This document shows positions 45,711-47,727 of a stretch of DNA of 64,000 bases, in pieces (the first letter of the stretch is position 1; each line of letters begins with the position of its first letter). Location: assembly GCF_037977055.1 (NCBI RefSeq), contig NZ_CP150274.1, forward strand, positions 6,696,001-6,760,000. The letters are read 5' to 3'. The translations under genes and the position numbers were made by a program. The stretch is from Paenibacillus sp. FSL K6-1096 (GTDB lineage: Bacteria > Bacillota > Bacilli > Paenibacillales > Paenibacillaceae). Below the pieces are notes generated by a model that saw only the letters and a program-made list of their open reading frames with translations, ran no database searches and had not been told where the DNA came from.

Positions 45711-45801
45711 GGAGATGAAGAATAGGTATTTTTACTATGATTGCTTGGGATGCGGGTTTAGCGTTCAATGAAGAGTGAATCCGCCGAGTAATGTTTGTGA
45801 A

Positions 45802-45833
45802 GCGCCTGTGGTCATTAGACTACAGGCGTTTTT
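45802..45833 (+). terminator. Terminator after the response regulator gene
   Basis: CGCCTGTgGTC (45803-45813) pairs with GACtACAGGCG (45818-45828) around ATTA, followed by five T. Confidence 0.85.
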
Positions 45834-45853
45834 AATGGGCGAAGAAGCCACAT

Positions 45854-45925
45854 GAGCAAATGTAATCGAAAAACCGATTACATTCAACCGCCGCGTGGGC
45901 AAGTGAGCAAATGTAATCGAAAAAC
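45854..45925. repeat. 51-bp hairpin repeat array, left part (split by IS110)
   Basis: One full unit begins at 45854 and a second at 45905, both GAGCAAATGTAATCG...; the hairpin is AATGTAATCG paired with CGATTACATT around AAAAAC. The second unit is broken after CGAAAAAC at 45925 and continues at 47514, so removing the insertion restores a 51-bp period. Gap 45711-46190 holds this array, the terminator and the left end of the IS. Confidence 0.9.
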
Positions 45926-46040
45926 AGTCATGACAAGACAGAGGCCTTGTCACCCCCAGGAATGAAAATAAGTGGGTGGCATCCGTCGCATCCATTCTAA
46001 ATGAGGCTGGAGTCGTCAACACTACATATACAAATCAAAG

Positions 46041-46168
46041 GGCGGAAACGGTTACTGGGACATACCCCGTTCGAAAAACCGTTCTATTGCGCTTTTCGAG
46101 CATCGCCTATTGTAGCCCCCAAAAGTACGTGTATTAAATTACACTCATTCGAGCGCATGATTTGTAAA
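46041..46168 (+). ncRNA. Candidate IS110 bridge RNA (limits approximate)
   Basis: In the 5' noncoding part of the IS. TCGAAAAAC (46071-46079) equals the nine target bases ending at the core (45917-45925). ATCG (46102-46105) is complementary to CGAT just right of the core. GTATTAAAT (46131-46139) equals the right end GTATTAAAC (47505-47513) apart from a last base allowing a U-G pair. CATGATT (46156-46162) is complementary to AGTCATG, the first seven bases of the IS, with one G-U pair. This target-then-donor order is that of the published IS621 bridge RNA model; transcript ends and fold were not determined. Confidence 0.65.
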
Positions 46169-46190
46169 CTGACGATGGAGGATGGTAGGA

Positions 46191-47405
46191 ATGGATGCTG
46201 TACGTATGTGTTGCGCCGGTCTGGACGTGCACCAGGAAACCGTTGTGGCCTGCGTGATGAAAGGACCGATCGAACAGAAACCCCAATGTCACCTGAAAAC
46301 CTTTGGGACGACAACCAAAGAATTGCTAGGCCTGCAAGATTGGCTGAGTGAACACGGGTGTCGGGAGGTAGTGATGGAGAGTACCGGCGTGTTATGGAAA
46401 CCGGTATGGAACATCTTAGAGGGCAGTTGTGACCTCGTCCTGGCCAACGCCCGGCGGGTAAAGAATACGCCGGGTCGAAAAACGGACATGCAAGATGCGC
46501 GCTGGTTAGCGCAATTGCACCGTTGCGGGCTCATTGAAGGCAGTATGGTGCCAGAACAAGACATCCGGGATTTGCGGGATTTGACCCGTTACCGGAGTAA
46601 GATGGTGCAGGCGGTGACGGCGGAGAAAAACCGCATTCACAAAATCCTTCAGGATGCCAACATCAAGCTGACCACCTTTATGTCCGATCTCTATGGGGTT
46701 TCGGGACGGGGCCTGCTCCAGAAGATCATGGACGGCGAGGTCGTGGACGAAGTGACCGTTAAAAACCTGGTCAAAACCCGTTTAAAACAGAAAGTTCCGC
46801 AGCTACTCGACGCGCTCAATGGCAAGTTGCGCCGTCATCATCGGGAGATGATTCGAGACCACTGGGACCACTTGGTCTATTTGGAGAAAAGAATCACGGA
46901 ACTGGAAGCGCGAATCGAGGCGAAGGCAGAACCGTACCTTGACTCCATTCCGGGAATTGAGCGGACGTCTGCCGTGACCATTTTTGCCGAAGTGGGGCCG
47001 CATGTCGCGGAGATGTTCCCGAGTGATGCGCAGTTTGCTTCATGGGCGGGAGTGTGTCCAGGGAACAACGAAAGTGCGGGAAAGCGAAGAAAGTCAAAAA
47101 CGATGCAAGGGAACAAGCATCTGAAAGGGGCGTTGTGTCAGGCGGCTTGGGCGAACGCTCGCTCCTCGAACCGGATCGGCCAATTCTTTCGACGAATCCG
47201 GAAGAGACGAGGCGATAAAAAAGCAAACGTCGCCACTGCGCATTTGCTGATTCGAATCCTCCATGCCCTAATGCGGGAGAAGAGGTCATACCAAGAAATA
47301 GACGTCTCACTAGGCGATGAGACGTCCAAGAAAAACAGGTTGGATCGGTATGTGCAATATATCCAGCAGTTAGGATATAGCGTGCAACTAAATCCTACCC
47401 CATAG
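46191..47405 (+). CDS. IS110-family recombinase (DEDD transposase)
   Basis: 404 residues. N-terminal RuvC-like DEDD domain with Asp12 (GLDVHQ), Glu63 (VMESTG), Asp99 and Asp102 (KTDMQDARWLAQL); a coiled-coil-like middle; C-terminal Transposase_20 domain with IPGIERTSAVTIFAEVG and the putative nucleophile Ser295 in CPGNNESAGKR. All key residues are intact, so the element may be active. ATG 46191 is chosen, with GGAGG 9 nt upstream; ATG 46182 overlaps that site. Base use differs from neighbours (many cgg/aaa/ttt codons), consistent with acquired DNA. Confidence 0.93.
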   Translation: MDAVRMCCAGLDVHQETVVACVMKGPIEQKPQCHLKTFGTTTKELLGLQDWLSEHGCREVVMESTGVLWKPVWNILEGSCDLVLANARRVKNTPGRKTDMQDARWLAQLHRCGLIEGSMVPEQDIRDLRDLTRYRSKMVQAVTAEKNRIHKILQDANIKLTTFMSDLYGVSGRGLLQKIMDGEVVDEVTVKNLVKTRLKQKVPQLLDALNGKLRRHHREMIRDHWDHLVYLEKRITELEARIEAKAEPYLDSIPGIERTSAVTIFAEVGPHVAEMFPSDAQFASWAGVCPGNNESAGKRRKSKTMQGNKHLKGALCQAAWANARSSNRIGQFFRRIRKRRGDKKANVATAHLLIRILHALMREKRSYQEIDVSLGDETSKKNRLDRYVQYIQQLGYSVQLNPTP

Positions 47406-47513
47406 TCTTCCCTTTTTCAAAAAAAACGAAACGTTTTTTGGGGGCGGTGGGTCTTTTTTTGTCAAAATCCAGTCTGCGGCGCGTTTTCCGGTACTTTTAT
47501 TTTCGTATTAAAC

Positions 47514-47580
47514 CGATTACATTCAACCGCCGCGTGGGCAAACGAGCAAATGTAATCGAAAAACCGATCACATCCGGCCC
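47514..47580. repeat. 51-bp hairpin repeat array, right part
   Basis: CGATTACATTCAACCGCCGC completes the unit broken by the IS; another unit starts at 47544 with GAGCAAATGTAATCG and an imperfect right arm (CGATCACATC). It carries a further intact TCGAAAAAC site at 47556-47564. Confidence 0.85.
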
Positions 47581-47727
47581 ACCGCCATGTGTATGGGGTC
47601 ACCGGTCCCAATATACGCAGGATGCCCCGCCCCCCTTCAACTGCACATAAGTTATATTTTCACAAAAACAGTAGACTGAGTGTAAATACACCGCCTGCCC
47701 TTCGCTGCTATACTCGGTTTGTCACAC

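What the first reader, a model, noticed from the sequence alone, without database searches (positions are those of the whole stretch)
45926..46190. IS110 element with a legible bridge RNA: target guide and donor guides can be read off
Seen: the IS interrupts a repeat unit, so both borders and the original target are known. In its 5' noncoding region TCGAAAAAC (46071-46079) equals the target's nine bases ending at the AC core; GTATTAAAT (46131-46139) equals the IS right end through the core apart from one G-U; CATGATT (46156-46162) is complementary to the first seven IS bases; ATCG (46102-46105) complements the four target bases right of the core. Known: IS110 recombinases (IS621) are guided by a bridge RNA with target loop first, donor loop second. 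Inference: this element's RNA directs it to these repeats. The exact target match extends to 11 nt (TCGAAAAACCG), unlikely by chance in 260 bp. Caution: TCGAAAA could also fold on TTTTCGAG (46093-46100).
Basis: partly seen in the sequence, partly recalled or inferred. Interest (0 to 1): 0.88.

Follow-up and report, generated by a model that had tools for sequence, protein, structure and literature searches.

The report
IS110 element with swapped guide RNA
A mobile DNA element in a Paenibacillus-type genome appears to carry a guide RNA that steers it into a family of hairpin repeats, and in this element and its relatives the two target-reading parts of that RNA sit in the opposite order from the best-studied example.

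Summary
The finding is real, but half of its annotation is wrong. The window holds an IS110-family element with a bridge-RNA-like region in its left end. Seven copies lie in the genome; all seven sit in the loop of the same hairpin repeat.

The other two do not. The supported one is AACGGTT (46047-46053), 5' of the left guide, at the one place that covaries clearly with right targets in a scan of 31 lineages. CATGATT (46156-46162), read as right donor guide, lies in conserved helices. The core is probably AA, not AC.

A covariation-supported structure shows the target loop running right guide, hairpin, left guide. That is the reverse of IS621 and ISEc21 and the order reported for IS1111, yet here the RNA is upstream and the protein about 410 aa. 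I call it a new variant of a known kind: an IS110 clade with a swapped target loop. No RNA or activity was measured.

The parts
45925..47512 (+). IS110-family element: left end from C45925, right end GTATTA 47505-47510 plus core AA 47511-47512; shared AAAC leaves up to 3 bp of ambiguity from this copy alone
   Evidence: copies and flanks; core placement from 23 lineages
45917..45924 (+). left target TCGAAA plus core AA, in the loop of the repeat AATGTAATCGAAAAACCGATTACATT
47511..47522 (+). core AA and right target CCGATTACAT, the other half of the interrupted repeat
46030..46165 (+). predicted core of the guide (bridge) RNA
   Evidence: consensus fold of 23 lineages; model R1 finds it in 7 of 7 own-genome copies at E about 1e-19 to 1e-20 (the window copy is in the training set)
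46030..46036 (+). helix P1, 5' strand, pairs with 46159-46165
   Evidence: 7 pairs, 5 with changes on both sides
46040..46044 (+). helix P2, 5' strand, closes the target loop with 46080-46084
   Evidence: 5 pairs, 2 with changes on both sides
46047..46053 (+). right target guide AACGGTT; CGGTT is complementary to core plus right target AACCG
   Evidence: the one place that covaries clearly with right targets
46056..46069 (+). apical hairpin of the target loop (stem 46056-46058 with 46067-46069)
   Evidence: 100% of cells paired, no double changes
46071..46079 (+). left target guide TCGAAAAAC (8 nt of target and core, plus a C that is conserved whatever the target)
46088..46157 (+). donor arm closed by helix P3 (46088-46095 with 46151-46157)
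   Evidence: 7 pairs, 6 with changes on both sides
46131..46139 (+). left donor guide GTATTAAAT, equals the right end GTATTA plus core AA
   Evidence: homologous positions in the relatives (the right ends were located with this motif, so that test is circular)
46182..47405 (+). recombinase, 407 aa; lacks 6 residues present in the other six copies and in the aligned relatives

Best explanation
This is an IS110-family element whose left end encodes a guide RNA of about 136 nt. Helix P1 encloses two arms. The first is the target loop: P2, then the right target guide on the 5' strand, an apical hairpin, and the left target guide on the 3' strand. The second is the donor arm, with the left donor guide. 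[quoted passage not shown] Shown by sequence: copies, sites, RNA fold with covariation, left guide, right guide and their order. Inferred: that the RNA is made, the circle intermediate, strand chemistry, and the donor pairing on the right side.
For: 7 of 7 copies in the same repeat at the same base, six of them identical to each other. Left guide matches own left flank, z 14.1 over 31 lineages. Two copies in one strain, P. cremeus L083 and L084, carry different left guides, each matching its own left flank at 9 of 9. Right guide: obs 2.72 of 5 versus 1.43 under permutation, highest of 1000 permutations 1.93, next separate column z 2.6; 26 of 31 lineages fit their own target better than others', and 0 of 20000 permutations reach the observed value after thinning to 24, 15 or 11 lineages. 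Distant set of 30 lineages under 47.5% identity (one, L102, also in the 31): 5' side P 0.0046, 3' side P 0.62. Fold: 95.8% of cells paired versus 84.1% shuffled, covariation 0.492 versus 0.253 (0 of 500 shuffles), best slid version 0.163. Model R1 matches 36 of 53 sources not used to build it at E up to 1, 24 at E up to 0.01; none of the three contrasts L225, L230, L238 (IS621) matches. Protein over the cut-offs of PF01548, PF02371 and NF033542.
Against: No RNA was measured. In 5 of 31 lineages the right guide fits no better than others' targets; one, L171, reads as a 7-nt match shifted by one base. The measure 'further standard pair types' is only weakly above shuffles (23 of 500), the apical hairpin has no double changes, and structure and alignment come from the same sequences. 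17 of 53 sources (14 of the 50 relatives) gave no R1 match. The window's own RTG pairs only AACCG (5 nt); the next target base mismatches. In its single-sequence fold the left guide pairs with TTTTCGAG (z -1.61). No convincing promoter was found. Left and right core agree at 79 of 90 sites, not all. The right donor guide is unidentified.
Confidence: 0.86

Rival explanations
1. One reading: IS621-like bridge RNA with left target guide first and right guide ATCG at 46102-46105, right donor guide CATGATT.
For: Order known from IS621 and ISEc21 (PMC11208160, PMC11187229); ATCG does complement CGAT in the window copy.
Against: ATCG column z -0.8; columns 332-340 reach at most z 1.0. The block around it, GAGnAYCGCCnATTG, is shared by elements with other right targets. 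In the genome's own copies only CCGA is common to the right targets, the fourth base of CGAT varies. CATGATT lies in P3 and P1, and some relatives keep CATG at the left end without it in the RNA (L097, L099).
Confidence: 0.04
2. The upstream region is not a guide RNA; the recombinase protein reads the hairpin repeat directly and the matches are incidental, or the matching sequence was copied from the target.
For: The target is a palindromic repeat, a common protein target; the single-sequence fold is not unusually stable (z -1.61); no RNA data.
Against: Guide and target change together over 31 lineages on both sides of the site, at fixed places within a fold with compensatory changes; different guides in one strain (L083, L084).
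Confidence: 0.05
3. The element is really of the IS1111 group, for which right-guide-first order is already reported, so nothing is swapped.
For: Order top-strand complement first is the order reported for IS1111 seekRNAs (abstract and sections of PMC11187229). One relative, L134, has the RNA downstream of its gene as in IS1111.
Against: RNA upstream of the gene, recombinase 407-413 aa against 330-350 aa given for IS1111 in that paper; no long subterminal inverted repeat was seen at the ends, though none was searched for systematically. No tree with named IS110 and IS1111 proteins was built here.
Confidence: 0.1

Closest known systems
IS621 bridge RNA and recombinase (IS110 family, E. coli)
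   Same: DEDD recombinase with PF01548 and PF02371 domains; guide RNA encoded upstream; internal loop with left and right target guides around an apical hairpin; left donor guide; insertion into palindromic repeats. Profile of this clade matches IS621 chain 8wt6_A at E 1.7e-23.
   Different: Target guides in the opposite order: IS621 left guide nt 50-58, right guide nt 77-80 (passages of PMC11208158; checked by reading the IS621 copy L238). Here a helix P1 joins the two ends of the RNA around both arms; [quoted passage not shown] Core AA/AT, not CT. Protein about 410 aa, not 328.
ISEc21 seekRNA (IS110 family)
   Same: Upstream noncoding region, two target-matching stretches.
   Different: Top-strand match lies 3' of the bottom-strand match in ISEc21 (PMC11187229 section 12); here it lies 5'.
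IS1111-group seekRNAs (ISEc11, ISPa11, ISKpn4)
   Same: Top-strand complement precedes bottom-strand match (PMC11187229).
   Different: RNA downstream of tnp and 330-350 aa proteins in IS1111; here upstream and 407-413 aa.
ISPpu9, ISPpu10, ISPa11, IS621 as repeat-targeting IS110 elements
   Same: Insertion at a fixed place of a dispersed palindromic repeat (PMC1525189, passages).
   Different: Other repeats and hosts; the repeat here has a 51-bp tandem period and is polar with respect to replication.

Membership tests
IS110 family | DEDD (RuvC-like) N-terminal domain, PF01548 | tested here: met
   89.5 bits, cut-off 29; D15, E66, D102, D105 invariant in 10 aligned sequences (that these are the DEDD residues is recalled)
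IS110 family | C-terminal Transposase_20 domain, PF02371, with conserved serine | tested here: met
   71.8 bits, cut-off 21.3; S298 in G--P----S invariant in 10 sequences, followed by A or N, then G, not directly by G as in the SG motif of PMC11187229
IS110 family | NCBI IS110 RNA-guided transposase model | tested here: met
   NF033542 264.1 bits, cut-off 140
IS110 family | Insertion without a target duplication other than a short core | tested here: met
   flanks of 7 copies continue the repeat with no duplication beyond the shared AAAC
IS110 family | Circular intermediate with joined ends | not testable with these tools
   needs PCR or sequencing
IS621-type bridge RNA | Left target guide on the 5' side, right target guide on the 3' side of the target loop | tested here: not met
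   right guide 5' of left guide
IS621-type bridge RNA | Guides for target and donor in two loops of one upstream RNA | tested here: inconclusive
   both target guides and left donor guide placed; right donor guide not found
IS1111 group | RNA region downstream of the transposase gene | tested here: not met
   RNA at 46030-46165, gene at 46182-47405; relative L134 is an exception
IS1111 group | Transposase of 330-350 aa | tested here: not met
   407 aa here, 413 aa in the six full copies
IS1111 group | Top-strand complement 5' of bottom-strand match | tested here: met
IS1111 group | Subterminal inverted repeats of 7-17 bp | not tested
   no systematic search was made

The most novel reading that the evidence does not exclude
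Guide order is not a marker of IS110 versus IS1111. A large clade of about 400-aa IS110 recombinases, found here in Bacillota and, with weaker support, in other phyla, uses a third bridge-RNA layout: closed by helix P1, target loop right-guide-first, normally upstream of the gene but able to move to the other end, as in L134 where a homologous RNA (43.4 bits) with a left guide matching the left flank at 9 of 9 lies downstream. The two halves of the target loop have therefore been exchanged, or the loop inverted, during evolution of this family.
Probability: 0.68. Interest if true: 0.72.

Novelty: new variant of a known kind. Interest (0 to 1): 0.62.

Why it matters
Bridge RNAs are being developed as programmable recombination tools, and the only solved structures that the profile search brought up are IS621 (328 aa), ISCro4 (341 aa) and a third, weak hit of 331 aa. 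A clade with about 410-aa proteins and a target loop in reverse order says that the protein-RNA arrangement is not fixed, and gives a testable prediction of which bases to change. It also corrects a rule of thumb that the order of the two target matches separates IS110 from IS1111, which rested on one IS110-type seekRNA and IS621.

Tried and rejected
Rfam: no match at gathering threshold in the window and none up to E 10 over 45900-46250, so no library model helped. Promoter scan of 45800-47620: two promoter-like sites, both on the minus strand, expected 1.5. Right donor guide: scans of the first 3, 4 and 7 bases of the left end gave at most z 3.4 with no consistent place; the left end varies too little for this test. 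Left donor guide: its covariation value (z 8.5) is circular because right ends were located with it. Viral contigs: 3 loci only. Plasmid protein search: 770 records, none at 60% identity or more. One extra RNA-model match in the own genome at 393063-393178 (E 0.55) has no recombinase beside it and is probably chance. Rows dropped: of 43 groups of upstream regions from 124 loci, L022, L132 and L144 were left out as misaligned, L171 and L172 were left out of the left-target test because the left-end pattern was misplaced, L013 also from the core count, and groups without a readable left or right end could not be used; 31 of 43 entered each of the left-target and right-target tests and 23 the core count. 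Site counts hold a few copies fetched twice from one genome (L078 and L219; L087 and L177), so they are slightly inflated; lineage counts are not affected. The IS621 order in the G035 family was read by eye only and not tested.

Full report
The element. The recombinase ORF at 46182-47405 scores over the curated cut-offs of PF01548 and PF02371 and of NF033542, NCBI's IS110 RNA-guided transposase. A profile of ten relatives matches IS621 (8wt6_A, E 1.7e-23) and ISCro4 (E 2.5e-20) among solved chains. The window is part of a 7.19-Mb genome, unnamed in the tool, with seven copies of the element. Six copies are identical to each other; the window copy differs from them at 60 aligned positions, including an 18-bp in-frame gap that removes six residues present in the other copies and in the aligned relatives. 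The window copy is thus a diverged and possibly inactive copy; the six identical ones speak for recent movement.

Target sites. In 7 of 7 copies the left flank ends AAT(G/A)TA(A/G)TCGAAAAAC and the right flank reads CCGA(T/A/C)(T/A/C)ACA, that is, the element sits in the loop of the hairpin repeat AATGTAATCG-AAAAAC-CGATTACATT. TCGAAAAACCGA occurs 236 times in the genome, 3 times as the reversed control. The repeat lies in tandem arrays: 62 of 88 gaps between neighbouring enumerated units are exactly 51 bp. Of ten genomes chosen by hand, nine, the own one included, carry the AATCGAAAAACCGA form (39 to 276 copies); among 60 relatives a stricter form was found in the own genome and one other.

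Collecting relatives. Searches gave 37 of 60 relatives with a match at E up to 0.001, 48 of 394 family genomes at E up to 1e-90, 79 loci from named genomes, capped at the best of at least 578, and 3 viral loci. Upstream regions of 124 loci at 47% identity or more fell into 43 groups, called lineages here, by similarity of that region.

Left target guide. At the place homologous to 46071-46079 the RNA matches the bases left of the element in nearly every lineage, 7 to 9 of 9 in the listed rows apart from misplaced left ends. The permutation scan gives z 14.1 for this column; the next value is 3.6 or lower. P. cremeus L083 and L084 carry different guides (ATAAAAAAC and GCAAAAAAC), each matching its own flank at 9 of 9. 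In one branch the guide is TGCGAAAAAC and copies sit at TGCGAAAAAC or, with one mismatch, at TCGAAAAAC.

Right target guide and order. For 31 lineages with readable right flanks (87 distinct sites) every alignment column was scored for complementarity to the lineage's own right target and compared with 1000 permutations of targets among lineages. One place stands out: columns 267-268, window 46047-46053, obs 2.72 of 5 against 1.43 (z 8.5; with core z 9.0); the neighbouring shift has z 4.7 and the best separate column z 2.6 to 2.9. 26 of 31 lineages fit their own target better than those of others, 5 do not; after thinning to 24, 15 or 11 lineages by RNA identity, 0 of 20000 permutations reach the observed value. 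Examples: L079 GGATTT for AAATCC, L087 GCCAAAT for ATTTGGC, L091 CGTTAT for ATAACG, L169 GCATTT for AAATGC. In 30 lineages of under 47.5% identity, ends found only by exact matches, the 5' side still exceeds permutation (4.17 versus 3.72, P 0.0046) and the 3' side does not (3.90 versus 3.93, P 0.62); this is weaker evidence.

Control of the convention. The same reading on an annotated IS621 copy (NZ_CP147105.1, locus L238) shows the flank ATCAGGCCT and, in the upstream region, ATCGGGCCT before the hairpin and GTAG after it, as published (left guide nt 50-58, right guide nt 77-80). [quoted passage not shown] So the order found here is truly reversed. In a 28%-identical IS110 family of G035 (five copies), reading by eye suggests the IS621 order; this was not tested.

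Structure. RNAalifold on 23 lineages gives P1 (46030-46036 with 46159-46165), P2 (46040-46044 with 46080-46084), an apical hairpin (46056-46058 with 46067-46069) and P3 (46088-46095 with 46151-46157). Counts: 95.8% of cells paired (84.1% in shuffles, 0 of 500), 13 of 22 pairs with changes on both sides (9.1, 1 of 500), covariation 0.492 (0.253, 0 of 500), further pair types 33 (29.7, 23 of 500); slid versions reach at most 0.163. The right guide lies on the 5' strand and the left guide on the 3' strand of the loop between P2 and the apical hairpin. A covariance model finds the seven own-genome copies at E about 1e-19 to 1e-20 and one weak extra match, and, among 53 loci not used to build it, 36 at E up to 1 and 24 at E up to 0.01; the three contrasts (two other IS110 groups and IS621) do not match. 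E-values of the model are rough.

Core and ends. Left and right core agree at 79 of 90 sites, and in 20 of 23 lineages the commonest base after the core on the right is not C although the guide's last base is C in the tabulated lineages. The core is therefore AA (or AT), and the C is the element's first base.

Comparison with print. Siddiquee and co-workers report that the two target matches come in opposite order in IS1111 and in the one IS110-type element they studied (abstract, sections 6, 12, 13, 14 and passages). The present clade has the IS1111 order with the RNA upstream and a protein of the length they give for the IS110 subgroup (395-455 aa). Text searches and passages of the papers they brought up did not show this combination; the library lacks most subscription papers and preprints, and figures were not visible, so the elements drawn in Durrant Fig. 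6 and Extended Data Fig. 10 could already show it.

Mechanism. By analogy with IS621 (inferred): the excised circle presents right end, core and left end; the RNA pairs its donor arm with this junction and its target loop with the repeat; the recombinase exchanges strands at the core. Because the guide fixes orientation, the element takes the orientation of the repeat. All seven copies point with the replication fork if dnaA (3,688,784) marks the origin, as do 66 of 70 repeat arrays.

Noticed in passing
G000 genome; window arrays at 45860-45925 and 47511-47573: The 51-bp hairpin repeats are polar with respect to replication: 143 of 158 enumerated units and 66 of 70 arrays point with the fork, taking dnaA at 3,688,784 as origin (158 of the 176 TCGAAAAACCGA(A/T) copies were listed; the other 60 copies were not). 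In genome G243 listed copies also switch strand by region. Cause unknown; lagging-strand or fork-linked spread is one idea.
   Followed up: partly
L134:2384-3885: A Deltaproteobacteria MAG element (40% identity) keeps the left-end motif but has the homologous RNA downstream of the gene; its left guide AACAGAAAC equals the left flank at 2384. A natural move of the guide RNA between element ends.
   Followed up: partly
L038, L046, L051, L052, L058 near 1600: Recombinases of G028, G034 and G014 copies break frame at a run of 8 or 9 A; the frame goes on in another phase. It recurs in three genomes and many copies, which suggests slippage (transcriptional or translational) rather than decay.
   Followed up: no
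window 46938: Window copy lacks 18 bp (six residues) of the recombinase that the six other copies and aligned relatives have.
   Followed up: partly
L201-L203 (G251): An IS110 of 47-48% identity with its own guide (TGCGAAAAC) sits at related hairpin repeats in another genome, so two element lineages seem to use the same repeat family.
   Followed up: no
L105:2055-2478: Two copies of the guide RNA in tandem upstream of one recombinase gene; possibly insertion next to a remnant of an older copy.
   Followed up: no
relatives G028, G034, G014, L087: Several other lineages also sit in repeated intergenic sequence, e.g. TTAACGGGAG...CTCCCGTTAA hairpins beside L087.
   Followed up: no
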